Source of the DNA: Thauera propionica
GTDB taxonomy: Bacteria > Pseudomonadota > Gammaproteobacteria > Burkholderiales > Rhodocyclaceae
Assembly: GCF_002245655.1 (NCBI RefSeq)
Contig: NZ_NOIH01000007.1
Location: 1-64,000 of the forward strand
Reading direction: 5' to 3'
DNA length: 64,000 bases
Part shown: positions 20,577 through 56,931 of the stretch, piece by piece
How the letters are laid out: the number at the start of each line of letters is the position of its first letter
How positions within the stretch are numbered: the stretch's first letter is position 1
Position numbers and translations under genes: made by a program
The notes under the pieces: model-generated
What the model saw: the letters and a program-made list of their open reading frames with translations, nothing else
Databases searched by the model: none
What the model was told of the DNA's origin: nothing

Positions 20577-20584
20577 GGCATCTC

Positions 20585-25481: not shown

Positions 25482-25484
25482 CGG

Positions 25485-32915: not shown

Positions 32916-33410
32916 TCAGAGGCCGTCGAGATCCTTCAGGATCTGCGCCACCGCAAACTCGAATCGCTTCTGCCGGTCGGCGAGTTCCTTGTTGCGCACT
33001 TCGCCGGCCTTCACGATGCTCTGGACGACCTCCGGCAGGGCCGGGTTCTTGTGGATGGCTTCGGCCAGTGCCTTGTCTTCAAGATGGCGCCGGGTTTCCT
33101 CGAGCGCAGTCAGTGCCTGCCGGTTGCGCTCCGCCAGACGCTTGCCATGTGCGTTCAGGGCATCGCGCAACTGGGAGACGATCTGGTCGTCGGGGCTTTC
33201 CAGCTTGCGCGTGGCCTTCGCGCGCAGTTCGGGCAGTACCGGGAGGTTCAGCAGCGTGCCCTGCGGCACCTTGTCGATCTCGGCCAGTTGCGGGTTGGCC
33301 TTCAGGATCGCGTCGACGGCCAACTCGCGCTGGCGTGGGGTCAGCTTGGTGTAGAGCTTGTCGGCGAGGTCGGCGACACTCTTCTCGCCGCGGAAGCTTG
33401 CGATGGCCAT
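32916..33410 (-). CDS. Small helical protein at the end of the eCIS operon
   Basis: Function not recognised (164 aa). The first 60 residues (ADKLYTKLTPRQRELAVDAI, then IDKVPQGTLLNLPVLPEL) look like a small LysM-like fold of the phage tail-X type. Residues 62-164 are highly charged and almost certainly helical, probably coiled coil. It lies 11 bases after the beta-helix gene, so it is probably made with it. It might help attach or fold that protein, which is only an inference from position. It is the last of the 21 genes. Confidence 0.65.
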   Translation of the reverse strand: MAIASFRGEKSVADLADKLYTKLTPRQRELAVDAILKANPQLAEIDKVPQGTLLNLPVLPELRAKATRKLESPDDQIVSQLRDALNAHGKRLAERNRQALTALEETRRHLEDKALAEAIHKNPALPEVVQSIVKAGEVRNKELADRQKRFEFAVAQILKDLDGL

Positions 33411-33421
33411 GAATGTCTCCC

Positions 33422-36400
33422 TCAGAGGCCGATGATGTTGGTCAGGCTGATGTCGGCCGGCACCGGTGCGCCGGACTGCACGCGGATGTTGCCGCTGCTG
33501 GTGTTGCCGATGACGACCGCCTGCTCGCGTTCGGGCAGCAGGTGAAGGGTGTCGGTTTCGTCGGGGCCGCGCAGGTGGTTGTTGCTCGCGTTCAGGCTGC
33601 GTCCGCCGATCTGGCCGATGACAGGCCCGCGGCCACCTTCGCCCAGCGCCTCGCAGTGGTTGTCGGCAAACAGGCAGTAGGCCATTTGCAGGCACTGGAC
33701 CAGGGGGACGGCGCTCTGCTGGCCGCACATGCGGTTGCCGCGGATCGACAGGTTCGAGGGGGCGAGGGCGATCGCCCGCACGCGGTTCGTCGTCAGCAGG
33801 TAGGCGCTTTCTGCCGCGGTGGCCAGGTGCGAGATGCCGTAATGGCTCGACGCCGTGGCCAGTTCCCCGGCCGCACCGCGGGGTTCGATGGCGACCAGCA
33901 GCGCCCACCATTGCGCCATGACCGGCTTCTGGTCCGGGCCGGAGACGCGGTCGAGCGTGTTGTCGTCGATCGCAACGCGGTCGAAGGGCGGCAGCAGCCG
34001 GATCGCGGCGACCGGCCCGCCGATGCGGTCGGGGCCGATGCCGTGAAGGCGGTTGCCGGCGATGCGCAGCTCGCCGATCGCCAGGGCGCGCAGGCCATCA
34101 ACGCCCGGGCTGTTGGCCGCCTCGCGGGCCACGTCGGCGATCAGGTTGTCGAGCACGTCGCCGCGGGTGATGTCCACCAGCTGCACGCCGGCGAAGCCGC
34201 GCTCGGCGTCCTCGAGCAGCAGGCCCAGGCGGCGGAACGCGTTGCCGCGCAGCATCAGGTAGCCGACCGCGCCGCCTTCCTCCATCAGCAGGCCGGCCTG
34301 GCCCGTGGCGTCGATGAGGTTGTCGGCGATCAGGGCGTCCTCCACGCGGTGGCGGATTGCGATGCCGTTGCCACGCATCAGGCTCACGCGGTTGGCGACG
34401 ATGCGCACACGGTCGAGTGCCACCGGGTCCAGCCCTTCCTGCAGTACGATGCCGTTGCGATTGCGGGCGCCCAGACCGGTGATCTCGTTGCGTTCCAGTG
34501 CGAGCCCGTCGATGCCGGCACGCACGCCGTCGCCCATTGTGTACATCACGTTGTCGGCCACGCTGACGGACGAGCCGGGCAGCACGCCGCCGGTCGCGAC
34601 GACGCTGGCATCGGCGCAGAGCAGCATCAGGTTGTGGTCGAGGCGGGTCGTGCCGTAGTGCAGCGTGGTGGCGTCAAAGCTGATGGCGCGCTGGCCGCAC
34701 AGCAGGATGTTGTCGGTGATGCGCAGCTCGGCGCTCAACAGCTGGCTCTGCCGCTCGCGCGCCAGCGTGGCGATGCCGCGTTCGGCGACGATGGCGCAAT
34801 CGCAAACGGCGGCCGCCAGCGCGAAGCCGGACAGGCCGATGCCGACACTGGTGCCGTCGCCCACCGCGACACCGAGCACATTCACATGTTCGATGCGCAG
34901 ATCGACGACATTGTGCGCGGCGATCACCGCGGTCGTGCCCGAATTCCCGCCCGAGCCCAGCGCGCTGAGATTCTCCAGCGCCACGCCGGTGCACGCGCTG
35001 ATGTCGAAGAGGCTGCCCGGTGCCGCGCCGGTCAGCAGTGTCGCCCAGCCCTGGCCGCGGATGCGCAGCGAACGCGCACCGGAGATCGTCAGCGGCGCGG
35101 CGATGCGGAACTCGCCGATGCCCAGGCAGACCGTGCCGCCGTGGTCCTTGATGCTGTCGATGGCCTGCTGGATGGTGGCCGCGCCGCTGTTGTGGCCTTC
35201 GGCGCTGACGCACACGCTACAGTCGCAGCCTTCGCCTTCGTGCAGAGGCGGCCACAGGGTACGGCAGTCATCCTCGCCGGACGGGAAGGTGACGACCGCC
35301 AGGCGCGCATAGTGATGGTGGATGCCCAGCGGGGGCGCGTGGTCGAGGCGCTCGATGCTGGCGTCCACGGTACGGGCGGCGAACACCCAGTGGTCGCCGC
35401 TGCGGAAATGCCCACCGCCGGCGGCCAGGCCGAACTCCACCAGCACGCCGTGTTCGAGGAACAAGCGCGTGCCGGCGGCCGGGATGCGGATCGTGCCGTG
35501 GCTCGCGGCGTTGTCCAGGTCCTGGAACACGGTGCCGTCCTCACGCCGAACCGCGCCGGCCTGGTCCCAGCGCCGGACGCGCGTGTTGCGCTGTGCCTGG
35601 GTGGCGTGCTGCGCATCGGTGGGGAACATGCCCGCCGGCAGCGGCGTGTCGAATTCCAGCGTGCGCGCGGTGTCATCCACGCCACCCGGTACGCGCAGGC
35701 GCCGCATTTCGCCCGGCAGGTTCTTCAGCTCGCGCCAGTCGTCGGTGATCTCCACCCAGTCGCCATCGTTGAAGCGCAGCACATCGTCGCGGCCGACGCT
35801 CTCCACCGTGATGCGGGTGCGTGCGGCGTTGATGTGGGTGACGCGCGAGGCCACGGTGGCGTTGTCGCGCGACCACTTGAAGGTCGCCGTGCCGAGTGCG
35901 CCACCGGCATGCACTTCGACACGATAGAGCTGGTTCTCCAGTCCGAGATAGCCCGCCGCGGGCGGCACCTCGCAGGGGTTGGGGGTGAAGTCCGGCGTGC
36001 CGGTCGTGGTACTCAGGCGTGCGGGCGAGGGCGCGGTGATCGCGGCCCAGCCCGGCACGTCCTCGTCCGCGCTGCTGCAGCCGGCATTGCCGATGTCGGG
36101 CAGCAGCTTCACCTGCCAGACCGTCTGCCGACGGCCGGTGGTGTCGACACCCACCGCCTGCTCGATCAGGTCCGGCGCCTGCACCGCGGTCAGGTCGCGC
36201 TGCCACACGTCGATATAAACCAGATGGCGGCCCTCCGCGGGCAGGGCCGGCGGGTCGGGGTAGTAGGGCTGGGCGGCATAGTCCACTGCCGTACTGCCGG
36301 TGGGCTCCGCCAGGCGGCTGTCCCAGGCGGTTGCGCCGGCGCCGTGGTTCTCTGCCAGCAGGCCGTCGACATAGATGCGCCCGCGCCCGATGGTGAAGCT

Positions 36401-36613
36401 GCCGCCCGTCGCCTGGATCAGGAAACCGTCGGGCGTGGTGCGCGGCACGACCGAGCCGCCGAAGGTGTCGAGCGTGCCGGCCTGCAGGCGGCGGCCAAGC
36501 TGGGCGACCCATTCGTTCCAGTCCGCATCGAGCTGGACGCGGCCCTGCTGCATGATGACGCCCAGGAAGTCGCGGCGGGCGTCGAAGCGGATGCGGCTCA
36601 GATCGAAACTCAT
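33422..36613 (-). CDS. eCIS DUF6519 / right-handed beta-helix protein
   Basis: The largest eCIS protein (1063 aa). Residues 1-430 match the DUF6519 type of phage-tail protein (FDARRDFLGVIMQQGRVQLD, then DADWNEW at the start). A cysteine cluster (GCDCSVCVSAEG) near 465 opens the second part, and ATIQQAIDSIKDHGGTVCLG begins a right-handed parallel beta-helix that runs to about 1000, with repeats such as LDHNLMLLC, LERNEITGL and IVANRVSLM about 20-25 residues apart. Such folds occur in tail spikes and fibres that bind or cut polysaccharide. A surface-binding role is likely but not shown. Confidence 0.8.
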   Translation of the reverse strand: MSFDLSRIRFDARRDFLGVIMQQGRVQLDADWNEWVAQLGRRLQAGTLDTFGGSVVPRTTPDGFLIQATGGSFTIGRGRIYVDGLLAENHGAGATAWDSRLAEPTGSTAVDYAAQPYYPDPPALPAEGRHLVYIDVWQRDLTAVQAPDLIEQAVGVDTTGRRQTVWQVKLLPDIGNAGCSSADEDVPGWAAITAPSPARLSTTTGTPDFTPNPCEVPPAAGYLGLENQLYRVEVHAGGALGTATFKWSRDNATVASRVTHINAARTRITVESVGRDDVLRFNDGDWVEITDDWRELKNLPGEMRRLRVPGGVDDTARTLEFDTPLPAGMFPTDAQHATQAQRNTRVRRWDQAGAVRREDGTVFQDLDNAASHGTIRIPAAGTRLFLEHGVLVEFGLAAGGGHFRSGDHWVFAARTVDASIERLDHAPPLGIHHHYARLAVVTFPSGEDDCRTLWPPLHEGEGCDCSVCVSAEGHNSGAATIQQAIDSIKDHGGTVCLGIGEFRIAAPLTISGARSLRIRGQGWATLLTGAAPGSLFDISACTGVALENLSALGSGGNSGTTAVIAAHNVVDLRIEHVNVLGVAVGDGTSVGIGLSGFALAAAVCDCAIVAERGIATLARERQSQLLSAELRITDNILLCGQRAISFDATTLHYGTTRLDHNLMLLCADASVVATGGVLPGSSVSVADNVMYTMGDGVRAGIDGLALERNEITGLGARNRNGIVLQEGLDPVALDRVRIVANRVSLMRGNGIAIRHRVEDALIADNLIDATGQAGLLMEEGGAVGYLMLRGNAFRRLGLLLEDAERGFAGVQLVDITRGDVLDNLIADVAREAANSPGVDGLRALAIGELRIAGNRLHGIGPDRIGGPVAAIRLLPPFDRVAIDDNTLDRVSGPDQKPVMAQWWALLVAIEPRGAAGELATASSHYGISHLATAAESAYLLTTNRVRAIALAPSNLSIRGNRMCGQQSAVPLVQCLQMAYCLFADNHCEALGEGGRGPVIGQIGGRSLNASNNHLRGPDETDTLHLLPEREQAVVIGNTSSGNIRVQSGAPVPADISLTNIIGL

Positions 36614-36625
36614 GATCGGACTCCG

Positions 36626-38806
36626 TCAGGATTCATGGAACAGGCCGGCGCACAGCCCGACCCGCAGGTATTCAGCCAGCCGGATGCGCAGGTTGGTCTC
36701 GCGCTGCGCGGCGTACAGGTGGTGCAGCGCCCCCATCTCGCCCTCGTCGTCCGCACCGCGGCGGATCTCGGCCGGGGTACGGACGGCAAGCTGGGCGTAG
36801 GCCGGCGTGCCATAGCGACGCGACACGAACTGTGGCGAGATGCGCTGGTCCGCGGCCGAGGCCGGCTGGCAGCGGTAGCGTTGCGGCACGATGGCGTCCA
36901 GCGGCAGCCAGCTGAAGCGGATGCAGCCGGCCTGCTTGCGTGCGGCCCGCACCGGTGCAGGCCAGGTGTCTCCGCTGCCGAGTGCCGCGAACAGGATGCT
37001 GTTGGCGACGAGGCCGACCTCGGCGGTGTGCAGCTTGCCGATCACGCTGCAGGCCGCGAGCGAGAGTTCGGCGCCGGGCGAGGCGTCATCCAGCCCGGCG
37101 AAGGCGACGCGCGCGCGACCGGTGGCATCGATCACGCTGTCGCTGGCGGTGAAGCGGGCGCGCGGATGGGCACGGATGCCACCGACGATGCTGCGGAGGA
37201 GGGTGGTTTCGAGCCCGGCGAGTTCCAGGCGCAGGCTGGCGGTGTCGGGTTGCAGGGGCGTGGCATCCGGCGCCAGGGCGATGCCCGGAACCAGCGTGCA
37301 GTGCAGCAGCGTGAGCCGTGCAAGCGCATTGCCGCCCGCGTCCGGCACCACCAGCGGCGCGCCGGTGACGAGCAGACCGTTGAGGGTGCAGGCGGCATTG
37401 TTTCCGCCGCGGATCGACAGCCCGCCCACCACCAGCACCGGGCGGAAGCCATTGGCGGCGCGGATCTCGATGCTGCCGTTGGCTGCCACGTCGATCGCCA
37501 GTGTCTCGGCGTAGCGGCGGTTGTCGGCGATCTCGACCAGCCCGTTGCCATCGATCTCCGCCAGCGCCGCGGCCAGCGTGGTGTGCTCGGCCGGCACGTG
37601 GGCGACGGGGACGCCGCCCGGCGGTGTCGGCAGGCTGTCGCCGCGCTCGTACTCGCCGCCACCGAGTTCGGCGCTGAAACCTTCGCGCCAGTCGAGGCGG
37701 ACGTCGGCCGGGTCGGGGGCGTCGCCGGGCAGGGCGATACGGCCGAGCTGCGGATCGATCGCGTACACGCCGTCGGGCGGTGGCGTATGGGCCCAGCCGG
37801 CGCCGTCGTCGGCCAGGTTGCAGATGCGGATGCGGTCGCGGTCGATGGCGGTCCCATCCACCCACAGCTGCAGCGCCAGCGCAGGGTTGTCGACGGCTTC
37901 GCCGGCGCTGGGACGGCTGCCATAGTGGCGACCGAGTTCGACCGCGAGGCGACGGCGCGACAGCGGCCAGGGTACGTTGTCCGGGCCGGCGAGGTGGCTG
38001 ATGTCGTCCTCGGCCAGGGGGCGGTTGTAGAGCGGCAGGTCGTGGTTCAGCGGGCTGGCACGGTAGCAGCGCACGCCCGCATGGGCCGCGGGGCTGGCGG
38101 TGTGCGGGAAGGCCTGGATGCGCCACAGGTGCAGGCCGACATTGGGGATGTTGTAGCGCCCGCCGCCGTGCTCGATGCGGCGCACCTCGACCGTGCGCAT
38201 GCTGGTGTCGAAGGGCGTGCCGAGCCACTCCAGGGCGCGCCCGCGGCGCAGGTCCGGCGACTGCAGCGCGTGCGGGCGCGGGTGGTTCATGTACTGGGTG
38301 GCGGCAAGGCGCTGGAAGTACTCGACCGCGCGCGCGTCCCAGCCGGTGACGTCGCGCGCAAGCTGTTCGAGGACCAGCGCCGTGCCCTTGCGCCGGCGCA
38401 ATGCGATCGTGTGCGCCACCTCGGCGCGCGGGCTGGCCACTTTCGGCGCCACGCTGTGCAGGCTTTCGTAGCCGATCAGGTCGCCGATGTAGGGCACGAC
38501 CCAGTCGGCACAGGTCTCGATGAACAGGTCGTCGTAGAGCTGGGCGAGGTTCTCGTCCATCGCGCCGATCTGCTCCGCGAACACGGCGATCAGCGATTCG
38601 AGCGGCCCGCGGGCGGCCTTTTCGTTCAGGGCGGCGAGGCGCTGCCGCTCGTCCGCGCTGGGCGCGGCGAGTTCGGCCAGCGCATTGCGTTCCGTGCGTT
38701 CGGCCACGGTCAGCAGGCTGTCGCCCATCTGCTGCGCCAGTTCGGCGTCGCGGATGCGATGGATTGCGGGGAGCAGCTCGAACAGGCTGCGGGTGTCGAA
38801 GCTCAT
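36626..38806 (-). CDS. eCIS baseplate protein, gpI/Afp12-like
   Basis: A 726-residue protein with the phage tail protein I pattern at its N-terminus: LFELLPAIHRIRDAE, then IGAMDENLAQLYDDLFIETC, then ADWVVPYIGDLIGY. The middle (about 170-420) is a mixed domain. Residues about 420-620 show short repeated strands (SIEIRAANGFRPVLVVGGLS, read as one of several) that suggest a beta-helix or beta-solenoid. In eCIS it would sit at the outer edge of the baseplate wedge and hold fibres. It overlaps the preceding gene by four bases. Confidence 0.82.
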   Translation of the reverse strand: MSFDTRSLFELLPAIHRIRDAELAQQMGDSLLTVAERTERNALAELAAPSADERQRLAALNEKAARGPLESLIAVFAEQIGAMDENLAQLYDDLFIETCADWVVPYIGDLIGYESLHSVAPKVASPRAEVAHTIALRRRKGTALVLEQLARDVTGWDARAVEYFQRLAATQYMNHPRPHALQSPDLRRGRALEWLGTPFDTSMRTVEVRRIEHGGGRYNIPNVGLHLWRIQAFPHTASPAAHAGVRCYRASPLNHDLPLYNRPLAEDDISHLAGPDNVPWPLSRRRLAVELGRHYGSRPSAGEAVDNPALALQLWVDGTAIDRDRIRICNLADDGAGWAHTPPPDGVYAIDPQLGRIALPGDAPDPADVRLDWREGFSAELGGGEYERGDSLPTPPGGVPVAHVPAEHTTLAAALAEIDGNGLVEIADNRRYAETLAIDVAANGSIEIRAANGFRPVLVVGGLSIRGGNNAACTLNGLLVTGAPLVVPDAGGNALARLTLLHCTLVPGIALAPDATPLQPDTASLRLELAGLETTLLRSIVGGIRAHPRARFTASDSVIDATGRARVAFAGLDDASPGAELSLAACSVIGKLHTAEVGLVANSILFAALGSGDTWPAPVRAARKQAGCIRFSWLPLDAIVPQRYRCQPASAADQRISPQFVSRRYGTPAYAQLAVRTPAEIRRGADDEGEMGALHHLYAAQRETNLRIRLAEYLRVGLCAGLFHES

Positions 38807-41613
38807 GGCAGCACCTCCACCTCGAGGCCGTTCGTCGCCAGCGTCAGCAGTTCGGCCGGGGCCGGCACCGCCGTCAGCGAGGGCTGGGGCAGCGTGGCGA
38901 ACAGGCGCGGGTGTTGGGCGGACGGCTGGCCGCTGCGGTGGAGCCGCGCAACATGGGCCGCCTCGACGCCGCGCACGCCTTGTGCCGCGGCCGCGATCTC
39001 GTCGAGCGACACCGTCTGCCCGAAGGCGCGCGCGGCGAAGGCGAAGCGCGCAAGAAGCGCGACGCGCACTGCGGCCACCACCGCCGCGGGTTCGAAGCCG
39101 TCGAGGGCGCGTACCAACACGCGGCAGCGGAAGCGGGCGTCGATGTGGTTCTCCAGGCGCAGGGGCACGAGTGGGTCGCCCCAGGTGCGCAGCGCGTCGA
39201 AGAGGTGACGGTAGGTGTCACTGTCCGCTTCGACCCGAGCGCCGCCGATGCCGGCAATCGTCACGAAAACCCCGCGCGCCGGGCCCGCAGGAATCCACAG
39301 CGCATGCGCCTTGTCGATGCCGGCGAAGGCGCGGGCGAAGTTGGCGTAGTCGGTGATCGACAGCGCGCGATCGAGCGTCAGTACCGTCAGCGGTGCGCTG
39401 TCACGCGCGTGGTCGATCGTCTCGGGGTCCTCGCCGCCGCTGGCCGCTTCGGGGTTGCTCGCTTCGCCGACGCCCAGCGGGCGGCTCAGCAGGGTGGTGA
39501 GCGTGCCCGCGCCGACATTGCCGCCTGCACCGATGCCCTTGCGGTAGCGCACGCGCACATTGGCCGTGCCGCTCGGCAGGCGCGCGCCCTCGATGCCATC
39601 GCCGAACTGGATGTGCGTATGCCCTTCGTCGTCTTCCCAAGTCTCGAAGGCGCGGGCGCCCGCCGACGCGGCGTAGACACTGGCACGTTCGGTCCACAGT
39701 ACGTCGTCCACACGCAAGGCCAGTGTCGACCGCCGTCCGCTCGGCGTGCTGGCGCTGACGTAGGTCAGCGGGGCCTGCGCCAGGCGGAAGCGCTGGTTCG
39801 CATGGCTTGCGTCGCCGTCGCCGAGGATTGCCTCGATGGTTTCGCCATGCGTGGCAGGGGCGACGTTGGCATTGACGCGCAGCGAGGCGCGCGCGAAGAC
39901 GTGCTTCAGCGGTGCCGCCAGTGTCAGCGTGGTGTCGTCGCGGTCGTGCGTGACCGCGGTGGCCGTATCTGCGATCCACGCGATTTCGGCCACGCGTGCG
40001 TCGTCCTTGCGTGCGGGCGCAAGCGCCAGTTCGCTGGCGTTGGCTTCCAGCGTTCCCGCGCGACCGCCGCGGTCCAGCAGGCGCAGACGCAGGCGCGTGG
40101 TGGCACGCCCCAGTTGGGCGACGAAGGTCTCGCCATCGAGTGCGACGGCACTGCCACCGATGAGGCGCGCCGCCGCTGCGAGCATGAACAGTTCGTCGCC
40201 ACCGGACAGCGGCACGGCCGCGCCGTCGTCTGTCGCCAGCACGAGGCTGGCTGCGCCGGCGGCGATGGCGATGCGCTGACGCGTGCCGGATACCGCGATG
40301 GCCTGGCCCGGCTGCAATCCCTCGGCGCGCACGCCCAGGGTGAGCAGCTCGTCCTGCACCGGATGGCGCAGCGGACGGGCGTGGGGAGTGAGGCGTTCGC
40401 TTTGTGCCAGCACCAGCGTACGGCGTAGCGGGAAACGGCTGGCGGTGAGGTTCTCGGCGGTGTCCGGCGTGATGCGGGTGACCTTGCCCGAAATGCCGAA
40501 GGCGTTGCGGCTGCGATGCGCGACCGCACGGACGCGGTAGAGCTCGGTGTAACCCGGCAGGTCCGCGCTGCCTCGTCCGGCCTCGTTCGAAACCAGCGCG
40601 ATCCAGCTGCCGCCGACGATTTTCGGGTTGTCGGTGTCGAGGTCGAGGGCGGCTGGGTCGAGCGCGAAGTTCTTCCAGTTCCAGTGCGCGCTGCTGGTGT
40701 CGATCAACTGCGCGATGTTGGAATCGGCATTGCCGAACAGGTTGGCGTCGGGCGCGTTGTGGCCGAAGAGCGCGGTGCGCTGGCGCAGTGCATGGACCTC
40801 CGCGCCGAGGCTGGCCGGGGTCATCGCCGGGAAGGCGCTGCCGAGCGGATGCGTCCACCGCAGGCGGGTGCGGCCGCCGGCAATGTCGGGCTCGACCGCC
40901 GACAGGACGCGCACGTCCCAGCGCTCGCTGCCCGGGTCGCGCTGGCGCTCCAGGCCGACGATGAGGATCGCGTCGCCCGGCGACAGCCCGGTGGCGACGC
41001 CTTCCAGCCACAGCTCGGTATCGCCGCGCCGGGGCCACCACGCTTCGGTGGTGCGCGCGGGCATCGCGTTCCACTCTGCCCGGGCGCAGATCTCGGCGAT
41101 GGTCTCGAAGGTCTGCGCGGTCTCGCCCTGGCCGGGCACGCTCTGCACCCGGGTGCCGGCCGGAATCGTGGTGGTCGTTGTGGGCGTCTGGGGTGCCCCC
41201 GGCGTGTCCTGCAGGGTGAAGGCGAGATGTGTGCCGGCGGCGACGCCGGGCGCGAGGCGGTAGCCTATGAGTCGCGCCAGTTCGCCCACCGACAGGCGCT
41301 CGGTGGCGGTGCGCAGGTAGTGCTCCTGGGCGATGCGCTCGGTGTAGAACGACAGCACGTCGAGCGAGCTCGCCAGCGCGTCGGCCAGCGCGAGCGTGAA
41401 GTCGCTCGACTCGCGCGTGCCGAGGCCGGCAAGCGCCGGGTAGTCGGCGCTCGACAGCCGGGCCTGGATCGAGGCGAGGAAGTCGCCGTGGCGCCCGGCG
41501 CGGTAACTGATGCTCGGCTGGCCCGGCGGGTTCGCGATGCGTTGCGGCGTGTCGCTGCCCGTGCCGCTGCAGCAGTCACAGCCGGGCAGACGGGAGCGGT
41601 CGGTGCTCATCAT
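38803..41613 (-). CDS. eCIS baseplate wedge protein, second gpJ-like
   Basis: A 936-residue baseplate-J-like wedge protein. The N-terminal part has FTLALADALASSLDVLSFYT, EHYLRTATERLSVGELARLI and GYRLAPGVAAGTHLAF, the pattern of eCIS baseplate assembly proteins. The C-terminal half resembles gpJ/gp6 (HIQFGDGIEGARLPSGTANV, then VRYRKGIGAGGNVGAGTL). A cysteine cluster PGCDCCSG lies at residues 10-17. Two start codons (41613 and 41610) are possible. It overlaps the first J-like gene by four bases; the two probably form a heterodimeric wedge. Confidence 0.85.
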   Translation of the reverse strand: MMSTDRSRLPGCDCCSGTGSDTPQRIANPPGQPSISYRAGRHGDFLASIQARLSSADYPALAGLGTRESSDFTLALADALASSLDVLSFYTERIAQEHYLRTATERLSVGELARLIGYRLAPGVAAGTHLAFTLQDTPGAPQTPTTTTTIPAGTRVQSVPGQGETAQTFETIAEICARAEWNAMPARTTEAWWPRRGDTELWLEGVATGLSPGDAILIVGLERQRDPGSERWDVRVLSAVEPDIAGGRTRLRWTHPLGSAFPAMTPASLGAEVHALRQRTALFGHNAPDANLFGNADSNIAQLIDTSSAHWNWKNFALDPAALDLDTDNPKIVGGSWIALVSNEAGRGSADLPGYTELYRVRAVAHRSRNAFGISGKVTRITPDTAENLTASRFPLRRTLVLAQSERLTPHARPLRHPVQDELLTLGVRAEGLQPGQAIAVSGTRQRIAIAAGAASLVLATDDGAAVPLSGGDELFMLAAAARLIGGSAVALDGETFVAQLGRATTRLRLRLLDRGGRAGTLEANASELALAPARKDDARVAEIAWIADTATAVTHDRDDTTLTLAAPLKHVFARASLRVNANVAPATHGETIEAILGDGDASHANQRFRLAQAPLTYVSASTPSGRRSTLALRVDDVLWTERASVYAASAGARAFETWEDDEGHTHIQFGDGIEGARLPSGTANVRVRYRKGIGAGGNVGAGTLTTLLSRPLGVGEASNPEAASGGEDPETIDHARDSAPLTVLTLDRALSITDYANFARAFAGIDKAHALWIPAGPARGVFVTIAGIGGARVEADSDTYRHLFDALRTWGDPLVPLRLENHIDARFRCRVLVRALDGFEPAAVVAAVRVALLARFAFAARAFGQTVSLDEIAAAAQGVRGVEAAHVARLHRSGQPSAQHPRLFATLPQPSLTAVPAPAELLTLATNGLEVEVLP

Positions 41614-44545: not shown

Positions 44546-44547
44546 GA

Positions 44548-44868: not shown

Positions 44869-44869
44869 G

Positions 44870-46515: not shown

Positions 46516-46870
46516 CCGTGCCTCCCGGTATGCCTGCGGGCAGGGTGATGCGGATGCGGCGGCCGAGCGTGGTGGTGAGCTCGTCCGGGCGCATCGCGCC
46601 GTTGCCGTCGCACAGGCGCCAGTACTGCTCGGCGTCGCCGAGGTAGCCGGCGGCGAGGTTGTCCACCCGGTCGCCGACGGCCACGGTGTGATGTTGCAGC
46701 GTGGCGAAATGCTCGGGCGGCGGGATGAAGCGGCGGCGCACATAGGTGACGGGCTCGCCGTCCGGCCCCGTCCATTGCGCGGTGTCGAGGCCGTGGTAGC
46801 GGCTGTCGGGGACGAACGCGGGCGAGGTCAGCGCGTTGGCCTGCATGAAGGTTTTCAGCGGATCGCTCAT
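46508..46870 (-). CDS. eCIS LysM-like small baseplate protein
   Basis: A 120-residue protein. The C-terminal half (VAVGDRVDNLAAGYLGDAEQ, then YWRLCDGNGAMRPDEL, then GRRIRITLP) has the spacing of a LysM or phage tail-X module, with the N-terminal half unlike anything I recognise. In Afp/PVC a LysM module is fused to the end of Cis7. Here it appears as a separate gene after the Cis7-like one, with a four-base overlap. Confidence 0.75.
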   Translation of the reverse strand: MSDPLKTFMQANALTSPAFVPDSRYHGLDTAQWTGPDGEPVTYVRRRFIPPPEHFATLQHHTVAVGDRVDNLAAGYLGDAEQYWRLCDGNGAMRPDELTTTLGRRIRITLPAGIPGGTDV

Positions 46871-48218: not shown

Positions 48219-48631
48219 GGCGAAGCTCTGCTGCCTTCCCTGTCGAGCCATGCCCGCCAGGCTGCGAGGCTGCGCTCGCGCGCGTCCTCGTCCGCGTTCC
48301 AGTCGTAGCTGCCCTGGGCGGCCCACAATGCGCGGAAGCGGTCCTCGCCATCGGTTGTGGAAAAGCCGCGTCCCGGCACGAAACCCATCTCCGCCATCAG
48401 AATGCCCTCGAAGACGCGCTGGGCGTGCAGGCGGGTTTCTGCCTTGGATGAGGCCATCAGGTTCAGCAGTCCGGGCAAGGCGGGGCGGCCGATCGTGACG
48501 AGCTCGTTTGCGGCTGGTGTGTGGTCGACGTGCAGTTCGTCCGGGGCCTCGTCGATGCGCTTCAGCAACTCGGCAACGCGCACCGCTGCTGGGCGAGGGG
48601 CTGTGCTGTCGTGGTGGGTGCTCGCGTTCAT
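48215..48631 (-). CDS. HEAT-like protein downstream of the DUF4157 gene
   Basis: A 138-residue protein with no family I can name. Residues 43-82 (LVTIGRPALPGLLNLM, then TRLHAQRVFEGIL) fit one HEAT-like helical repeat, and the C-terminus (residues 86-133) is rich in Trp and charged residues. It begins 11 bases after the DUF4157 gene, so it might be a chaperone or a self-protection factor for that protein; no direct evidence. The start at 48631 is chosen because it is the first ATG after the DUF4157 stop. Confidence 0.65.
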   Translation of the reverse strand: MNASTHHDSTAPRPAAVRVAELLKRIDEAPDELHVDHTPAANELVTIGRPALPGLLNLMASSKAETRLHAQRVFEGILMAEMGFVPGRGFSTTDGEDRFRALWAAQGSYDWNADEDARERSLAAWRAWLDREGSRASP

Positions 48632-48642
48632 CAGCGCCCCCT

Positions 48643-49821: not shown

Positions 49822-50077
49822 GATTTCACTCCGCGCAGAATCGGGCCGGCGAGCGCGCGGCCGAGTGTTTCGGGCGGGGCGCTGCGGGTGATCCGCAGCG
49901 GTGGGGCCTTGATGCGACTGCGGCCGACGATCCCGCGCAGTGCGGCAAGGGCGTCGGCTTCGCCGTTCGTTCCGAGCTGGCGCTGCAGTTCTTCCTGCAG
50001 GGCACTGACCAGTGCCTCGGCGTCCTTCGGGTCGATGCCGTGCAGGACCAGACGGTCGATGTGGAGCACAAGCCGGC

Positions 50078-50081
<4 letters not shown>
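49818..50081 (-). CDS. Small conserved-looking eCIS protein
   Basis: Function not recognised (87 aa). The N-terminus SRLVLHIDRLVLHGIDPKDA, then LVSALQEELQRQL suggests a strand-helix unit; the rest is basic with GxxxxRALAGPIL near the end. It overlaps both the AAA+ ATPase gene and the DUF4157 gene by four bases, so translation is tied to both. Possible adaptor between the ATPase and cargo or tube parts, as inference only. Confidence 0.65.
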
Positions 50082-52011
<1,930 letters not shown>

Positions 52012-52015
<4 letters not shown>

Positions 52016-53322
52016 GTGATTGTCAGCCGAAGGTCGAGGAAGCGGGGTGGCACGACGCCGTGGTCGATGATCGGGCTGTCGATGCCATCGACGCGCAGCC
52101 GCACGAGATGCGCGCCGGTCTCGGCATTGTCGATGACGAAGTCGAGGGTGGCGGTCGGCGCGGTGTAGGCCTGAGGGGCGAGTTCGCGCTGGCCGACGAT
52201 GAGCGTGGCGCGCTGCCCGGCGCGCAGCTCGGGCGTGAAAGTGATGGTGACGAGGACATCGCCCGCCGGGTTGCGTGCCACGGTTTGCGGCAGGTTGGTG
52301 ATGTCCGGGGCGAGGGTGAAGCCGAGGCGATTGCTGTCACGCGGGCGCGGCTCGCCCGCGCGCACGAGCCGCGCGCGTGCTTCATAGACACCGACCGGGA
52401 AATCGGCCGCGCGCGATGCGGGGATGCTGAACACCATGCGCCCGGATTCACTGGCGCCACTTGCCGGCAAGGTCTCCGCCACGGCGAAGCGTTCGCTGGC
52501 GAGCAGCACTTCGCGTGCGCTGCCATCCAGGTGATGGCCCTGCAGGGTGACGGCCTCGCCCAGTCGCGCCGCGGGCTGGCCGGCGGCCGGCAGCACGGCC
52601 TCGATTGCGGGCAGCGGCGGGACGAGATCGGGGGTCACCACCACGCCGCGTTCGCGCCCGGAAATCGGGTCGCGCTCGCCGCGTGTCAGCACCGGCAGCG
52701 GCGCGCGCGTAGACCGGGTCGCTTCGATCAGTACCACCGAAACCTGGTAGGCGGCGCTGGGCCGAAAACTCGACTGTGTCGCCGACCACAGGCGCGACAC
52801 CTCCTCGGTGTCGATCGTCAGCGGCGTGATGCGCAACATCTCGAGCTGGTCGGCCAGGCCGCAGTCGGACAGTGCCCGCAGCGCCGGCGGCAGCAACACG
52901 CCGACGTCGGGCGAGGGCGTCAGCGCGGCACGGATCATCTCGCGCGTGAGGACCGGGAACTCGTGCAGCAACTGCATTGCGTAGCCCAGCAGGATCTCCG
53001 CGTGCAAGTCGCCACCACTGTAGGCAGAAAGCAGGTAGTTGAGGTCGAGCGCCAGTGGCGGGTTGCCGACCCGATGGCGTCCGTCCGGATCGTGGGCCGG
53101 GAGGCCGGCGTTGCGCCAGGCAGCGTTGGGTGCGACGCGATACAGGAACAGGTTGAGCTGGCTCGACTCGGCACCGTCGGCCGGCACGACGCGATCCGGT
53201 GCGCGTACGCTTACCGTGACCGTGTTGCCGATCAGTCCCGCCACGTTGTGGTTGACCAGTCCATCGTTGAGCCGGTCGCGCAGCACGGCGGTGACCCCGG
53301 CGATGGCGAGCGCGGTGCTCAT
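52012..53322 (-). CDS. eCIS DUF4255 protein (Afp16-like tube terminator)
   Basis: A 436-residue protein. Residues 1-190 are the DUF4255 domain of Pvc16/Afp16 tail terminators: AIAGVTAVLRDRLNDGLV, then LNLFLYRVAPNAAWRNAGLP, then LALDLNYLLSAY, then EILLGYAMQLLHEFPVLT. From about 235 to the end there are two or more Ig/TIG-like beta domains (AVTLQGHHLDGSAREVLLAS, then DITNLPQTVARNPAG). Afp16 alone caps the tube; the beta extension is extra and could decorate the far end of the particle or bind a surface. Confidence 0.88.
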
Positions 53323-54122
53323 GTGCCACCCCGGTTGCGGCGGTCGAGGTAGTCCTGGAGCGACATCGGCGCCGTGGCGGCGCGCTCGCGGGCCCTGGGG
53401 GTGGCCGCTTCCTGCACCGCCGTCACCTCGATGCGGCCGATGTGGATGTGGATCTCGTCAGTGGCCGCCGGACCAGCCTGACCGGGTTGCGGGCGAGCAT
53501 CGAATGCAGACGACGCGCCTGGCAAGCGCAATCCGCCGCCACGCGCCGGTTTCGGTGGCGCAGGCGCGATGCGCGACCACGGCCCGGCGCCAGGCGCGAC
53601 GCCTGAAGCGGGCAGCGACGCCGGGTCCGAGACCTCCGGCAATGGTGCGGCAGGCCGGGCAGTCGCTTGCCCGCTCGACTCGCGGCGTGGCGACCGAGCA
53701 CCGGGTGACTGCGCTGGGGCGTCTGCAGTCTCTGTTGAACGTCCGGGCTTACGCGCGATGGGGCCCAGCAAGGGGGCGGGAAGGCCCTGCGGGAGGTTGG
53801 TGACCGACGCTGCAAGGCTGCCGGACGCATCACTTTCGGAAGCGGCAACGGATTCCCGTCGGCCCGTGTTTGCGGCGGGGCGGGCAAACGAGGCTTGCGG
53901 TGCGGCGATCGTCGTCGCGCCGGCCGTCCGTGCGTGTCCGGCTGTTTCGGCGCTGGCCGAAACAGCACGCGCTCCATAAGAAGCGTCCGCAGTTTCCTCT
54001 GGCGTCGCCAGTGCCGGCGGCGCGTGGAAGGGCAGGCGTGCGGGCGCATGCAGGCGTGGTTCGCGCGTCCCGCTGGCCCGCCTTGCCAGCCGGCTGAAGA
54101 GCCCTCCGCCCGATCCGCTCAT
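53319..54122 (-). CDS. Disordered Pro/Ala-rich eCIS protein
   Basis: A 267-residue protein with no known domain. Residues 1-215 are low-complexity (Ala, Pro, Ser, Gly, Arg) and probably unfolded. The last 50 residues hold a strand-like motif (DEIHIHIGRIEVTAVQEA, about 220-237) and a C-terminal helix (SLQDYLDRRNRGGT). A long flexible arm plus a short structured end suits an anchor or scaffold, and it is the only candidate seen for a length ruler, which is a weak guess. Four-base overlaps with both neighbours. Confidence 0.65.
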   Translation of the reverse strand: MSGSGGGLFSRLARRASGTREPRLHAPARLPFHAPPALATPEETADASYGARAVSASAETAGHARTAGATTIAAPQASFARPAANTGRRESVAASESDASGSLAASVTNLPQGLPAPLLGPIARKPGRSTETADAPAQSPGARSPRRESSGQATARPAAPLPEVSDPASLPASGVAPGAGPWSRIAPAPPKPARGGGLRLPGASSAFDARPQPGQAGPAATDEIHIHIGRIEVTAVQEAATPRARERAATAPMSLQDYLDRRNRGGT

Positions 54123-54826
54123 GGCGTCACCCGTGCGAGGTAGGCGGCCCTTCGCAGGTCACCGAGGGCGAGGATCTCCTCCTCGCGCCAGCCGTAGCTG
54201 CTCGCCAGCAGATGAACCTCGTCGAGCAGCCTGCTGGCATGGGCTTCGATCTCCTCCCACAGGTAGCTGGCGATGTCGAAGGCGGCCTCGCCCGCATGCC
54301 CGCAGGCGGGACACCGGTAGCCCACCGCCAGGTCGGCCCAGGGATCGGCTGCTTCGATGGCATGCTCCGCATGCACCAGCAGCTGGTCGAGCATCGCGTT
54401 GTCCGCTGTCAGTCGCGCGTCCCCGGCGACACAGCCGAGGAGCAACTGGCGCGAGGCTTCGTCAGCGTCCGGGCAGTCGGCCAGCGCGGCCAGCTGGCGC
54501 GTACCGGGGCAGCGGAAGCGATGTCCCTCGACCTCGATCACATCGGGAACCGGCGTCATGGCCGGCAGTTGCGCAAGGTCGAGCTCGAAGCTCATGCGTT
54601 CCCCGCACGCCGGACAGTCGGTCCAGGCCGGGATCGCAGCGCCGAAACAGTCGCGCCGCAGCCGCATCAGCGCGGCATTGCAGGCGCCCAGCGGCGCATC
54701 GGCAAGCGCGTCGGGCGCCAGCCCCGGCTCGGCCACCGCGAACAGCAGCAGTGCGCGGTCCAGCGGATGACGCCGAGCGCCATGCTCCCAGACCGACAGC
54801 AGTTGTGCGGCGCTCAGGGCGGGCAT
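54119..54826 (-). CDS. eCIS zinc-ribbon protein, T4 baseplate-chaperone-like
   Basis: A 235-residue helical protein with two CPACG knuckles (C71/C74 and C172/C175) that probably bind one zinc. The pattern AAQLLSVWEHGARRHPLDRA at the start and the central TDCPACGERMSFELDLAQLP resemble proteins annotated in other clusters as T4-like baseplate hub assembly chaperones. It sits right after the tube gene (eight bases). It is more likely an assembly factor than a particle component. Confidence 0.7.
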   Translation of the reverse strand: MPALSAAQLLSVWEHGARRHPLDRALLLFAVAEPGLAPDALADAPLGACNAALMRLRRDCFGAAIPAWTDCPACGERMSFELDLAQLPAMTPVPDVIEVEGHRFRCPGTRQLAALADCPDADEASRQLLLGCVAGDARLTADNAMLDQLLVHAEHAIEAADPWADLAVGYRCPACGHAGEAAFDIASYLWEEIEAHASRLLDEVHLLASSYGWREEEILALGDLRRAAYLARVTP

Positions 54827-54834
54827 GGTGATGC

Positions 54835-55359
54835 TCAGGCCGGTTCGTTGAAGCTGGGCTCGGTCGGTTCGCCGACCTCGTAGTCGCGCTCCCAGCCCTC
54901 GTTCTCGAGCTTGATCGTCTGGATCGCGACCGCGTTGGCGTTGGCATCGAGATCGGGCAGGGCTTGGTACTCCGAAACCCAGCAGCGATACACCTTGTAG
55001 GCGATCGCCAGCTGGCCGGCTTCGTTGTAGACCTCGATGATCAGGTCCTTGCGGAAGTCCTTGAGCGAGACTTCCGCACCGAGGCCGGAACCGAAGTTCC
55101 ACACCTTGTTCGCCCACTGCTCGAACTCGCGGTCGTGGGTGACGCCGCGTTCTAGGGTGATCGCATCGAAGCGGGTACGGCCCGGCGACTTGCGCGAGGT
55201 CGAAGGGTCGCCGCCCTCGCGGTGTTCGACCAGTTCGGTGCTGCGCTTGAGGGCGCCCACCTTGCTGATGCCGGCGACGTAGCGACCATCCCATTTGACG
55301 CGGAATTTGAAGTTCTTGTAGGGATCGAAGCGCTGCGCGTTGACGCTGAACTGTGCCAT
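54835..55359 (-). CDS. eCIS inner tube protein (gp19/Hcp-like)
   Basis: A 174-residue T4 gp19-like tube protein, which stacks as hexamers to form the inner tube. The N-terminal FDPYKNFKFRVKWDGRYVAG, then KVGALKRSTELVEHREGGDP, then ITLERGVTHDREFEQWANKV are typical, as is the late segment YKVYRCWVSEYQALPDLDAN. It is the only tube gene in the operon, whereas Afp and PVC have two kinds. It lies 12 bases after the sheath gene. Confidence 0.93.
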   Translation of the reverse strand: MAQFSVNAQRFDPYKNFKFRVKWDGRYVAGISKVGALKRSTELVEHREGGDPSTSRKSPGRTRFDAITLERGVTHDREFEQWANKVWNFGSGLGAEVSLKDFRKDLIIEVYNEAGQLAIAYKVYRCWVSEYQALPDLDANANAVAIQTIKLENEGWERDYEVGEPTEPSFNEPA

Positions 55360-55371
55360 GACGGTCTCTCC

Positions 55372-56931
55372 TTAGGCTTCGATCTGTCCGGCCATCTGCT
55401 GGATCTTGATGACGACGAACTCGGCCGGCTTGAGCGGCGCGAAGCCGACCAGGATGTTCACGACGCCGCGGTCGATGTCGTTCTGGGTGGTGGTTTCGGC
55501 GTCGCACTTGACGAAGTAGGCGTCGCGCGGGCTGCTGCCCTGGAAGGCTCCCTGGCGGAACAGGTCCTGCATGAAGGCGCCGATGTTGAGCCGGATCTGT
55601 GCCCACAGCGGCGAATCGTTCGGCTCGAACACGACCCACTGCGTGCCGCGGAACAGGCTTTCCTCGATGTACAGCGCCAGCCGGCGGACCGGCAGGTACT
55701 TCCATTCCGACGCCAGTGCATCGGCGCCGGCCAGCGTGCGTGCGCCCCACAACAGGTGGCCGGTGACCGGGAAACTGCGCAGGCAGTTGAGTCCGACCGG
55801 ATTGAGCACGCCGTTCTGCGCGTCGGTCATGGTGTAGGTGAAACCCTGCACCCCGGAGAACGAGGCCGCGAGGCCGGCCGGCGCCTTCCACACGCCGCGC
55901 TGGCCGTCGGTGCGGGCGATGATGCCGGCGACCGCACCGCAGGGCGCGAAGTCGGCGAGGCGGTTCTCGCTGAGCGGGTCGGGCATGCGCAGGCGCGGGA
56001 AGTAGGCTGCGGCGTTGATCGCATCGTCGTTGCCGATCGTGGCGCGCAGGCCGTTGACGCCGGTTTCGGCGGTCGCGATCGCGGTGCTCGCGTTCGCGGT
56101 CCATGCGGCTGGCGCATCGATGATCAGCATCGCGCGCCGTTCCTGGCAGTAGGCGGCGGCAGTCGCCCAGGTCGCGGCCACCAGGTCGGCGTCGAACGAG
56201 GGCGGCGGAATGCACAGCAGGTTGAAGAGGTCCGCCGCCTCGAGCGCGTACAGCCCGGTGCGCGCGTCGCGGTCACCGGCGATCTGGGTGTCGATGATGG
56301 CGCCGCCGTCGGTAGCGGTGGTGGTGGCGTTCGCCGTGCCATCGACCGGACTCTCGTCGGCCGGGGCGGATGTCCTTACCCTGACGAGGGCGGACTGCGC
56401 CTTCAGCACCGTATCCACGAAGCGCGCGCTGCCCGGGCTGACGGAGACGTTGCGGAACGGTTCCGAGGCGACCACGGTGGTGCCGCCGGCGCGGTCGAGT
56501 TCCTCCACCGTCAGGTTGAACAGCAGCGTGTCCGACGTGTCTCGGGTGAGATGGTCGACCCGCGCCCGCAGGCGATTGCCCCAGGTGCCGGGGCTCGCGG
56601 CCTCGAGTACCAGGTTGCCGGAGGTGGTCGCCAGCGTGATCGTCGCGGTGTCGGTGTCGGCATCGCCATTGAACACGCGCACGATCAGCGCATCACGGCC
56701 ACCGTGCTGGAAGAAGTGACTGACCGCGTAGGACATCGTGCTCGAACGCGACAGCCCGCCAAACAGGCGGCTGTACTCGGCGAAACTCTGTACGCGGATG
56801 GCGCGGTCGACCTCTCCGCGCAGGGCGCGACCGATGAAGGCGGTAATCGATGTGGCGACACCGGTGATCGTGCGTACGCCACTCGGAATCTCCTCGATAT
56901 AGATCCCGGGGTAACTCAGGACTGACGGCAT
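55372..56931 (-). CDS. eCIS contractile sheath protein
   Basis: A 519-residue sheath subunit. The start SVLSYPGIYIEEIPSGVRTI and TGVATSITAFIGRA are the usual N-terminal arm of phage-tail sheaths; the C-terminal third is highly typical (WKYLPVRRLALYIEESLFRG, then FVVFEPNDSPLW-like, then IGAFMQDLFRQGAFQG, then LKPAEFVVIKIQQ). A variable domain fills about 100-230. It is the only sheath gene, where Afp has three. ATG at 56931 gives the usual N-terminus; the upstream ATG at 56955 adds eight residues. First gene of the operon. Confidence 0.95.
   Translation of the reverse strand: MPSVLSYPGIYIEEIPSGVRTITGVATSITAFIGRALRGEVDRAIRVQSFAEYSRLFGGLSRSSTMSYAVSHFFQHGGRDALIVRVFNGDADTDTATITLATTSGNLVLEAASPGTWGNRLRARVDHLTRDTSDTLLFNLTVEELDRAGGTTVVASEPFRNVSVSPGSARFVDTVLKAQSALVRVRTSAPADESPVDGTANATTTATDGGAIIDTQIAGDRDARTGLYALEAADLFNLLCIPPPSFDADLVAATWATAAAYCQERRAMLIIDAPAAWTANASTAIATAETGVNGLRATIGNDDAINAAAYFPRLRMPDPLSENRLADFAPCGAVAGIIARTDGQRGVWKAPAGLAASFSGVQGFTYTMTDAQNGVLNPVGLNCLRSFPVTGHLLWGARTLAGADALASEWKYLPVRRLALYIEESLFRGTQWVVFEPNDSPLWAQIRLNIGAFMQDLFRQGAFQGSSPRDAYFVKCDAETTTQNDIDRGVVNILVGFAPLKPAEFVVIKIQQMAGQIEA

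What the first reader, a model, noticed from the sequence alone, without database searches (positions are those of the whole stretch)
32916..56931. Complete 21-gene extracellular contractile injection system in a single operon
The sequence shows, in one direction and with 12 four-base start/stop overlaps, a sheath, tube, AAA+ ATPase, DUF4255 terminator, Cis7, hub, spike, PAAR-like tip, gp25, two J-like wedges, gpI and a fibre-like protein. No capsid, terminase, portal, lysis or integrase genes and no T6SS membrane-complex genes are present. From family knowledge this is an Afp/PVC-like eCIS. Gene order differs from Afp/PVC: the ATPase, terminator and cargo lie between the tube and baseplate genes.
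Basis: partly seen in the sequence, partly recalled or inferred. Interest (0 to 1): 0.75.

Follow-up and report, generated by a model that had tools for sequence, protein, structure and literature searches.

The report
Phage-tail-derived injection machine, known lineage
The bacterium carries one intact operon for a spring-loaded, phage-tail-like injection needle; it appears to belong to a lineage already described in print, but it shows that this lineage kept the phage's gene order and a phage-type assembly helper beside a partner protein that we did not find described.

Summary
In detail: 21 consecutive minus-strand genes (32916-56931), all open, encode a contractile injection system (CIS). 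I count 11, not 12, four-base overlaps, plus one of eight bases. One of 28 other genomes of the genus (G017) has the same operon in the same place, intact and under purifying selection. No phage head or T6SS membrane gene was found.

The interpretation needs correcting. The sheath does not group with Afp/PVC. It falls in a supported clade spanning many phyla that fits the published description of the Streptomyces davawensis CIS group. The 'different' gene order is that clade's normal order (38 of 39 loci) and is collinear with a contractile phage tail, the cap-ATPase-cargo block sitting where the phage has its tape-measure-like gene. The fibre has the published eBAP5 (DUF6519) anchor. 'Extracellular' is plausible (fibre, no dedicated membrane protein) but unproven.

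New details: a T4 gp26-like hub-assembly chaperone in 53 of 53 relatives with this sheath type; next to it a low-complexity protein with a conserved C-terminal IGR(I/V/L)EV motif (47 of 54 loci), my candidate length ruler; and a rare cargo cassette (DUF4157 protein, HEAT protein, CxxCxxCC protein). A new member of a known kind.

The parts
55372..56931 (-). sheath, 519 aa (single copy in the genome)
   Evidence: PF17482 5.9e-11; PDB best 9ezm 5.1e-78, CISSc 8bky 1.7e-72 over the full length; one match in own genome; 99% aa in G017
54835..55359 (-). inner tube, 174 aa (only one tube gene of this type)
   Evidence: PF06841 2.1e-45; TIGR02241 1.5e-44, CIS1/CIS5 families far below their cut-offs; 100% aa in G017
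54119..54826 (-). T4 gp26-like baseplate hub-assembly chaperone with two CxxC pairs, 235 aa
   Evidence: PF12322 25.0 bits, cut-off 24.5; Cys 71, 74, 172, 175 invariant in 52 sequences; AF2 pLDDT 95.0; BFVD matches to phage gp26-like hub-assembly proteins, best 2.8e-6; no PDB match
53319..54122 (-). 267-aa low-complexity protein ending in the conserved IGRIEV ... SLQDYL tail; candidate length ruler
   Evidence: no family match; motif ORF in this slot in 48 of 54 loci by regex, 47 after dropping L020 as spurious
52012..53322 (-). cap / tail terminator (Pvc16_N), 436 aa
   Evidence: PF14065 1.6e-47
50078..52015 (-). AAA+ ATPase (Cis15-like) with winged-helix domain, 645 aa
   Evidence: PF00004 1.1e-26, PF22977 7.8e-14; up to 61% identity in named genomes
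49818..50069 (-). small 83-aa protein after the ATPase; function unknown
   Evidence: HHH_5 E 0.04 only; best-match ORF in 16 of 80 loci
48643..49821 (-). cargo/effector candidate: eCIS_core (DUF4157, HEAIH motif) plus 220-aa C-terminal domain, 392 aa
   Evidence: PF13699 1.3e-23; only eCIS_core protein found in the genome; no PDB match
48215..48631 (-). 138-aa partner of the cargo; its L050 homologue is a HEAT-repeat protein
   Evidence: HEAT_2 2.2e-10 in L050; no family match for the window's own copy
47517..48218 (-). CxxCxxCC (YkgJ-type cysteine cluster) protein, 233 aa, part of the cargo cassette
   Evidence: PF03692 8.5e-7; 47% identity to the L050 homologue
46867..47520 (-). Cis7-type tube/hub adaptor, 217 aa
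   Evidence: PF19266 in 26 of 28 homologues
46508..46870 (-). LysM/gp53-like baseplate protein, 120 aa
   Evidence: phrog_7145 baseplate wedge 0.0023; Phage_tail_X in 10 of 27, LysM in 3 of 27
45376..46515 (-). baseplate hub, 379 aa, separate from the spike
   Evidence: profile of 31 homologues hits VgrG chains 9rce 1.2e-10 and 7aef 2e-5
44870..45379 (-). spike (gpV-like OB domain), 169 aa
   Evidence: PF04717 1e-19
44548..44868 (-). PAAR-like / DUF4280 spike tip, 106 aa
   Evidence: DUF4280 0.0071, PAAR 0.036
44177..44545 (-). gp25 wedge, 122 aa
   Evidence: PF04965 3.1e-18
41610..44180 (-). J-like wedge 1, 856 aa
   Evidence: TIGR02243 2.9e-77; CISSc Cis11 chain 9gtp 1.6e-7
38803..41613 (-). 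J-like wedge 2, 936 aa
   Evidence: TIGR02243 1.1e-58
36626..38806 (-). gpI/Tail_P2_I-like fibre adaptor, 726 aa
   Evidence: TIGR02242 0.0051, Tail_P2_I 0.077; no PDB match
33422..36613 (-). fibre: DUF6519 (eBAP5) anchor plus right-handed beta-helix, 1063 aa
   Evidence: PF20129 2.1e-34, Beta_helix 0.02; eBAP5 = DUF6519 in PMC12923769; no PDB match
32916..33410 (-). 164-aa last gene, gpX/LysM-like N-terminal part plus predicted helical part; function unknown
   Evidence: PF05489 3.3e-5, phrog_46 baseplate hub 1.1e-5

Best explanation
A working contractile injection system of the broad, multi-phylum lineage whose only experimentally studied member that I found in print is that of Streptomyces davawensis. 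Shown by sequence: a single intact operon with sheath, tube, cap, ATPase, separate hub and spike, tip, wedges, fibre adaptor and fibre, in the gene order of a contractile phage tail, with the cap, ATPase and cargo genes standing where the phage has its tape-measure-like gene. Inferred working: the hub and spike are put together in the cytoplasm with help of the gp26-like chaperone; tube and sheath polymerise on the baseplate to a length set by an internal ruler (best candidate: the 267-aa IGRIEV protein) and are closed by the Pvc16-type cap; the AAA+ ATPase helps to load the DUF4157 cargo into the tube; particles are set free by an unknown route (no lysis gene seen in the scanned neighbourhood); the DUF6519 beta-helix fibre binds a target surface, the baseplate opens, the sheath contracts and the tube carries the cargo through the target's envelope. 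Likelihood: CIS of this lineage 0.95; acts on other cells after release 0.55; acts on the producer or stays inside 0.35.
For: Families and coordinates. Sheath clade 96/97 with 52 loci of many phyla plus L084, L085, L109. Order kept: 38 of 39 loci with 8 or more of 13 core genes, 52 of 53 for sheath-tube-gp26-cap-ATPase, 40 of 40 for ATPase-Cis7-LysM-hub. Same operon in G017, no internal stop in any of 21 genes, dN/dS 0 to 0.50. Nine profiles hit nine collinear genes of Streptomyces phage GiJojo, whose gene in the cargo slot is a 1056-aa tail protein with a partial tape-measure match (phrog_991 5.9e-11). Fibre anchor described as eBAP5. Only two hydropathy peaks over 1.8, in the fibre and in J2. 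DUF4157 proteins were shown inside AlgoCIS tubes and bound to the spike complex in Streptomyces (passages of PMC8894135, PMC11126660, PMC13277306).
Against: No experiment. The S. davawensis sequence itself was not held, so lineage membership rests on the published description, not on a tree with that sequence. The nearest studied relatives in the wider superfamily are cytoplasmic or contact-dependent. No release gene was found. Hub, gpI, PAAR and LysM calls are weak for the window's own proteins taken singly. The tree uses 187 columns and its deep forks are unresolved.
Confidence: 0.8

Rival explanations
1. A cytoplasmic, self-acting CIS: particles stay in the producer and under stress fire inside it, as described for S. 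coelicolor and S. davawensis.
For: The two Streptomyces systems act on the producer (passages). No lysis gene seen. The best full-length PDB match of the sheath is CISSc (8bky, 1.7e-72).
Against: The operon has a DUF6519 fibre and a gpI-like adaptor; the CISSc clusters lack a conventional fibre. The window sheath is not in the CISSc group. No membrane protein like CisA in the operon.
Confidence: 0.3
2. A membrane-anchored, contact-dependent system in the manner of the haloarchaeal clade IIa CIS.
For: Sheath 9ezm (E 5.1e-78) has the best E-value in the PDB search; that system is described as a T6SS mode of action (PMC11566945, passages).
Against: 9ezm falls outside the window's clade on the sheath tree, though its own place is weakly supported (81/30). 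No IcmF in the genome and no dedicated membrane protein in the operon.
Confidence: 0.08
3. A defective or remnant prophage tail.
For: Nine operon profiles hit a phage tail cluster in the same order.
Against: No head, packaging, lysis or integrase family among 40 of 60 scanned genes; cap, ATPase and cargo genes have no hit among the phage's 19 tested proteins; all 21 frames open in two species under purifying selection; the best phage sheath covers only 40% of the query at 37% identity.
Confidence: 0.02

Closest known systems
Streptomyces davawensis CIS group with Tme effector (PMC11126660; passages seen)
   Same: Sheath clade spanning Proteobacteria, Chloroflexota and Actinobacteria apart from CISSc; DUF4157 gene immediately upstream of the baseplate genes. 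In my set, 10 of 12 Streptomycetaceae loci carry a DUF4157-like ORF of 2184-2443 aa in that slot.
   Different: The window's cargo is only 392 aa, without the tape-measure-like or membrane parts described for Tme, and comes with a HEAT and a CxxCxxCC gene; the window has a DUF6519 fibre. Direct comparison with the S. davawensis sequence was not possible.
eBAP5 (DUF6519) eCIS subtype (PMC12923769; passages and section 7)
   Same: DUF6519 fibre anchor next to a Tail_P2_I-like gene at the end of the baseplate genes.
   Different: Host is a proteobacterium while eBAP5 correlates with Actinobacteriota in that paper (it also says that all eBAPs occur in some Pseudomonadota).
Afp / PVC (clade Ia)
   Same: Same core parts: sheath, tube, cap, AAA+ ATPase, spike, wedges, fibre.
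   Different: One sheath and one tube gene; hub and spike separate; ATPase, cap and cargo between tube and baseplate genes; sheath outside the Afp3/Pvc2 group. The Afp/PVC gene order is recalled.
S. coelicolor CISSc (IId; PMC10066040, PMC12237407; passages)
   Same: Sheath alignable end to end (8bky), single sheath.
   Different: Different sheath group; CISSc has two tube genes, a VgrG-like spike, no conventional fibre and a membrane protein CisA.
Tail of Streptomyces phage GiJojo (PP725410.1)
   Same: Sheath, tube, gp26-like, Cis7-like, LysM-like, hub, spike, gp25 and J genes in the same order.
   Different: A free phage with a 1056-aa tape-measure-like gene where the CIS has cap, ATPase and cargo; terminator gene lies before the sheath.

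Membership tests
CIS / eCIS superfamily (as defined by Geller et al. and Chen et al.) | Linked sheath, tube, spike, gp25, J-like baseplate and AAA+ genes | tested here: met
CIS / eCIS superfamily | eCIS marker domains Pvc16_N and DUF4157/eCIS_core | tested here: met
   1.6e-47 and 1.3e-23
CIS / eCIS superfamily | No phage head genes and no T6SS membrane complex nearby | tested here: met
   40 of 60 window genes scanned; IcmF-related 0 in own genome, control rings in E. coli
CIS / eCIS superfamily | Particles released and acting outside the cell | not testable with these tools
   needs microscopy and fractionation
Afp/PVC clade Ia | Sheath groups with Afp and Pvc sheaths | tested here: not met
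   Afp3, Pvc2 and 9qgl form a 100/100 group apart from the window's clade
Afp/PVC clade Ia | Three sheath paralogues | tested here: not met
   one sheath in the genome
CISSc-type IId | Sheath groups with S. coelicolor 8bky | tested here: not met
   8bky groups with L008 and L035 (95/73), window in another clade (96/97)
S. davawensis (Tme) CIS group | Sheath clade mixing Proteobacteria, Chloroflexota, Actinobacteria, distant from CISSc | tested here: inconclusive
   such a clade holds the window, but the S. davawensis sheath was not among the rows
S. davawensis (Tme) CIS group | Large tme-like DUF4157 gene upstream of the baseplate genes | tested here: not met
   window cargo is 392 aa in that slot; relatives in the clade range from empty slots (4 of 45) to over 2,000 aa
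eBAP5 subtype | DUF6519 at the N-terminus of the fibre | tested here: met
   PF20129 2.1e-34 in two stretches
eBAP5 subtype | Afp8/VgrG phylogeny places the locus in the eBAP5 branch | not tested
   their alignment was not held
T4 gp26 family (for the 235-aa gene) | Fold and profile match to gp26-like hub-assembly proteins | tested here: met
   PF12322 just over cut-off; 31 BFVD matches at E 0.001 or better, several named as hub-assembly proteins; no tblastn match in 50,697 phage records at E 0.01; profile hits GiJojo gp82 (3.9e-14 in a search of 19 proteins)
Phage tape measure proteins (for the 267-aa gene) | Recognisable sequence homology | tested here: not met
   no Pfam, NCBIfam or PHROG match; a single-sequence profile of the window's copy finds nothing in GiJojo
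Phage tape measure proteins (for the 267-aa gene) | Length sets tail length | not testable with these tools
   needs mutants and microscopy

The most novel reading that the evidence does not exclude
This CIS lineage builds its tail the phage way with a dedicated assembly pair that we did not find described for CIS: a T4 gp26-like hub-assembly chaperone (never expected in the finished particle) and a low-complexity protein with the conserved tail h.h.IGR(I/V/L)(E/D)V.A ... SL.(D/E)YL, which has taken over the length-ruler job of the lost tape measure, while the vacated tape-measure slot in the operon became the loading dock (cap, ATPase, DUF4157 cargo). Because the cargo in that slot ranges from nothing to over 2,000 aa while the pair is nearly constant, length would be uncoupled from cargo.
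Probability: 0.3. Interest if true: 0.6.

Novelty: new member of a known kind. Interest (0 to 1): 0.4.

Why it matters
As a locus it is one more member of a widespread and mostly unstudied CIS lineage, in a proteobacterium where no Streptomyces-type life cycle can explain it. If the phage-order reading is right, the lineage shows how a phage tail operon was turned into a delivery machine: the place of the tape measure was given to the cap, the ATPase and the cargo. The gp26-like chaperone and the IGRIEV protein are specific, testable candidates for assembly and length control in CIS clusters that lack an Afp14-type ruler.

Tried and rejected
Afp/PVC membership: rejected on the sheath tree. Prophage and T6SS: rejected. 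CISSc/IId membership: expected at first from the PDB search and from the presence of Streptomyces loci, rejected by the tree.

Cargo C-terminal domain: no PDB match for the whole protein; AlphaFold2 with two sequences gave pLDDT 38, useless, not interpreted. Distant relatives: L050 at about 60% identity; L093 (G124), where it stands between eCIS_core and OmpA; a weak profile hit in L043 (3.5e-6). In one search, 3 of 300 genomes of the order matched (own, G124, G247); the G247 match (1.2e-4) was not found again by the profile and I count it as chance. Profile of the domain in 398 genomes of the phylum: own genome only. CxxCxxCC profile: 8 of 398, only the own genome over the full length; the best other (G427, 3.4e-23) covers the cysteine part only, in an ORF without CIS genes in its 2.5-kb locus.

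IGRIEV protein: an earlier, stricter count gave 18 of 53, because of a narrow search stretch and pattern; the recount is 48 of 54, with L020 dropped by me as a chance hit, so 47; none found in L007, L016, L025, L044, L062, L075. Motif hits also in L010 and L022, whose loci show no gp26-like gene.

Host name: not determined; kinship of named loci is not told. Search of L091 on the wrong strand gave nothing, repeated on the right strand.
Full report
1. The observation. Twenty-one adjacent ORFs on the minus strand run from 56931 to 32916 with gaps of 12 bases at most. The sheath is the only one found in the 3.93-Mb genome, as is the eCIS_core protein.

2. It is intact and kept. Of 28 other genomes of the genus, one (G017) has this sheath (99% identity), 14 have only a different CIS sheath (41-44% identity over part of it) and 13 none; several are incomplete. 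In G017 the whole operon lies in the same place with no internal stop in any of the 21 genes and dN/dS between 0 and 0.50. The highest ratios are those of the tip (0.50), the IGRIEV protein (0.46), the LysM-like protein (0.45) and the gp26-like protein (0.43); the sheath is 0.10, the tube 0. Synonymous divergence of the operon genes (0.03-0.25) is lower than that of most of seven flanking genes (0.16-0.68), so recombination or transfer between the two species, or codon constraint, is possible. In G008 and G005 the left flank (DUF3429, oxidoreductase, two photolyases) is syntenic and no operon protein matches in the 18 kb fetched: the operon is gained or lost as a block. The one other CIS of the genus that I looked at (G001, 20 kb) has cap, two sheath genes, spike, gp25 and J in another arrangement.

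3. Lineage. A tree of 73 sheath domains (187 columns) puts the window in a clade of 56 rows (96/97), nearest to Comamonadaceae G21597-S1, Hydrogenophaga aromaticivorans and a betaproteobacterial MAG. The clade mixes Pseudomonadota, Actinomycetota, Cyanobacteriota, Chloroflexota, Bacteroidota, archaea and others. Afp3, Pvc2 and 9qgl (100/100), three cyanobacterial sheaths (99/99), CISSc 8bky with L008 and L035 (95/73) and 9ezm lie outside. 9ezm is named once in the H. borinquense paper (PMC11566945; the count was seen, not the passage). Deep forks are unresolved and the phage row is a long branch. Nagakubo et al. 2024 (PMC11126660, passages) describe the S. davawensis CIS as part of a clade with Proteobacteria and Chloroflexota, distant from CISSc, with a very large DUF4157 effector (Tme) directly upstream of the baseplate genes. 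In my set 10 of 12 Streptomycetaceae loci have a 2184-2443-aa DUF4157-like ORF exactly there. I therefore think that the clade is the same, but that sequence was not held and this is an inference. A subtype name (IIb, IIc ...) was not tested.

4. Gene order. Among 80 loci found through the ATPase (a best-80 list, so biased to near relatives of this protein), 39 hold at least 8 of 13 core genes and 38 of these keep the window's order; sheath-tube-gp26-cap-ATPase 52 of 53; ATPase-Cis7-LysM-hub 40 of 40. The exceptions are L016 (spike before hub) and L069 (ATPase before cap). An eCIS_core-like ORF lies between ATPase and Cis7 in 38 of 46.

5. Why this order: it is a phage tail. Profiles of the operon proteins were run against 19 proteins of Streptomyces phage GiJojo, chosen because its sheath was the best phage match. 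Nine consecutive roles match in order: sheath gp80, tube gp81, gp26-like gp82 (3.9e-14), Cis7 gp85 (7.7e-5), LysM gp86, hub gp87 (2.2e-7), spike gp88, gp25 gp89, J gp90; gpI matches gp92 weakly (7.7e-4); cap, ATPase, PAAR, cargo genes, fibre and the IGRIEV protein match nothing (E-values are for a database of 19 proteins, and one phage only was compared). Between gp82 and gp85 the phage has gp83 (65 aa) and gp84 (1056 aa). PHROG calls gp84 a minor tail protein (1.8e-215), with a partial tape-measure match (5.9e-11). In the CIS this slot holds IGRIEV protein, cap, ATPase and cargo. Nagakubo et al. already proposed that Tme-type effectors derive from tape measures; the collinearity here fits that and extends it to the whole block.

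6. The gp26-like protein. Fifty-two homologues share four invariant cysteines in two CxxC pairs. The AlphaFold2 model is confident (pLDDT 95.0, pTM 0.90), has no PDB relative and matches 31 viral models at E 0.001 or better, several named T4-like hub-assembly proteins or gp26 (best 2.8e-6, TM-scores mostly 0.4-0.6). Pfam agrees, barely over its cut-off. It is present in 53 of 53 loci with a clade-type sheath in view (52 placed on the tree, plus L042, too partial to place), in the neighbouring row L086, and in the phage; among five genome-contig loci outside the clade there are only two weak partial matches.

7. The IGRIEV protein. Directly after it, 47 of 54 loci have an ORF of mostly 250-450 aa (outliers up to 1091; stop-to-stop lengths), rich in A, P, S, G, T and Q (39-64%), ending in h.h.IGR(I/V/L)(E/D)V.A, a proline-rich spacer and (S/T)L..YL. 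The stricter pattern occurs in 31 of 17131 ORFs of the 80 loci: 30 in this slot, one more in L010. I found no family for it and no paper holding 'IGRIEV'; one search listed no paper that pairs gp26 with eCIS. Its place after the chaperone, its near-constant presence and the absence of an Afp14-type gene make it my candidate ruler. Support from the cargo slot: it ranges from 146-337 bases without an ORF of 150 aa or more (L037, L066, L069, L075; 4 of 45) to over 9 kb; all four keep the gp26-like gene, three of the four the IGRIEV ORF. Against: no homology to tape measures, no coiled coil, composition unlike known rulers. A cap adaptor or cargo-loading factor is as open.

8. Cargo. The window's slot is compact (2558 bases; 9 of 45 loci are smaller, median 5379). 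The DUF4157 protein, the 138-aa protein and the CxxCxxCC protein occur together in the window, in G017 and, among the 80 loci, only in L050 (Chromatiales MAG). The L050 partner is a HEAT-repeat protein. The partners may be a chaperone, immunity or maturation proteins; there is no evidence to choose. A toxic activity of the cargo is inferred from the family only (PMC8213781, PMC11297309; passages).

9. Extracellular or not. For: the DUF6519 fibre, which PMC12923769 names eBAP5 and takes as a sign of outside targets; no dedicated membrane protein (hydropathy peaks over 1.8 only in fibre and J2). Against: no release gene seen, and the relatives studied so far work inside or on the producer or by contact. 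I give 0.55 for action on other cells.

10. Verdict. Real, intact and not a phage remnant; a new member of a known kind.

Noticed in passing
53319-54122 and L002-L081: Low-complexity protein with a conserved C-terminal IGR(I/V/L)(E/D)V...SL.DYL tail next to the gp26-like gene in bacteria and archaea; no family in Pfam, NCBIfam or PHROGs.
   Followed up: partly
L112 (G001:C1:1778001-1798000): Other members of the same genus carry a different CIS with two sheath genes, whose larger sheath type (L091 as example) is closest to CISSc in the PDB.
   Followed up: partly
55372-56931, 44870-46515: Sheath, tube, hub, spike and LysM-like genes have dS of 0.03-0.05 between the two species, against 0.16-0.68 in flanking genes: recent exchange or codon constraint.
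   Followed up: no
57385-58605: A PAS-PAS-GGDEF gene stands divergent to the operon across 453 bases; in G017 the similarity between the two genomes ends inside it.
   Followed up: no
L093:322-2157: A DUF4157 protein in which the cargo's C-terminal domain is followed by an OmpA domain, in another genome of the order.
   Followed up: partly
49818-50069: A small ORF after the ATPase recurs as best match in 16 of 80 loci, function unknown.
   Followed up: no
17412-26012: A type II secretion gene cluster (GspC, D, E, F, G, L types) beside an alkaline phosphatase PhoX gene; its small genes diverge strongly between the two species.
   Followed up: no
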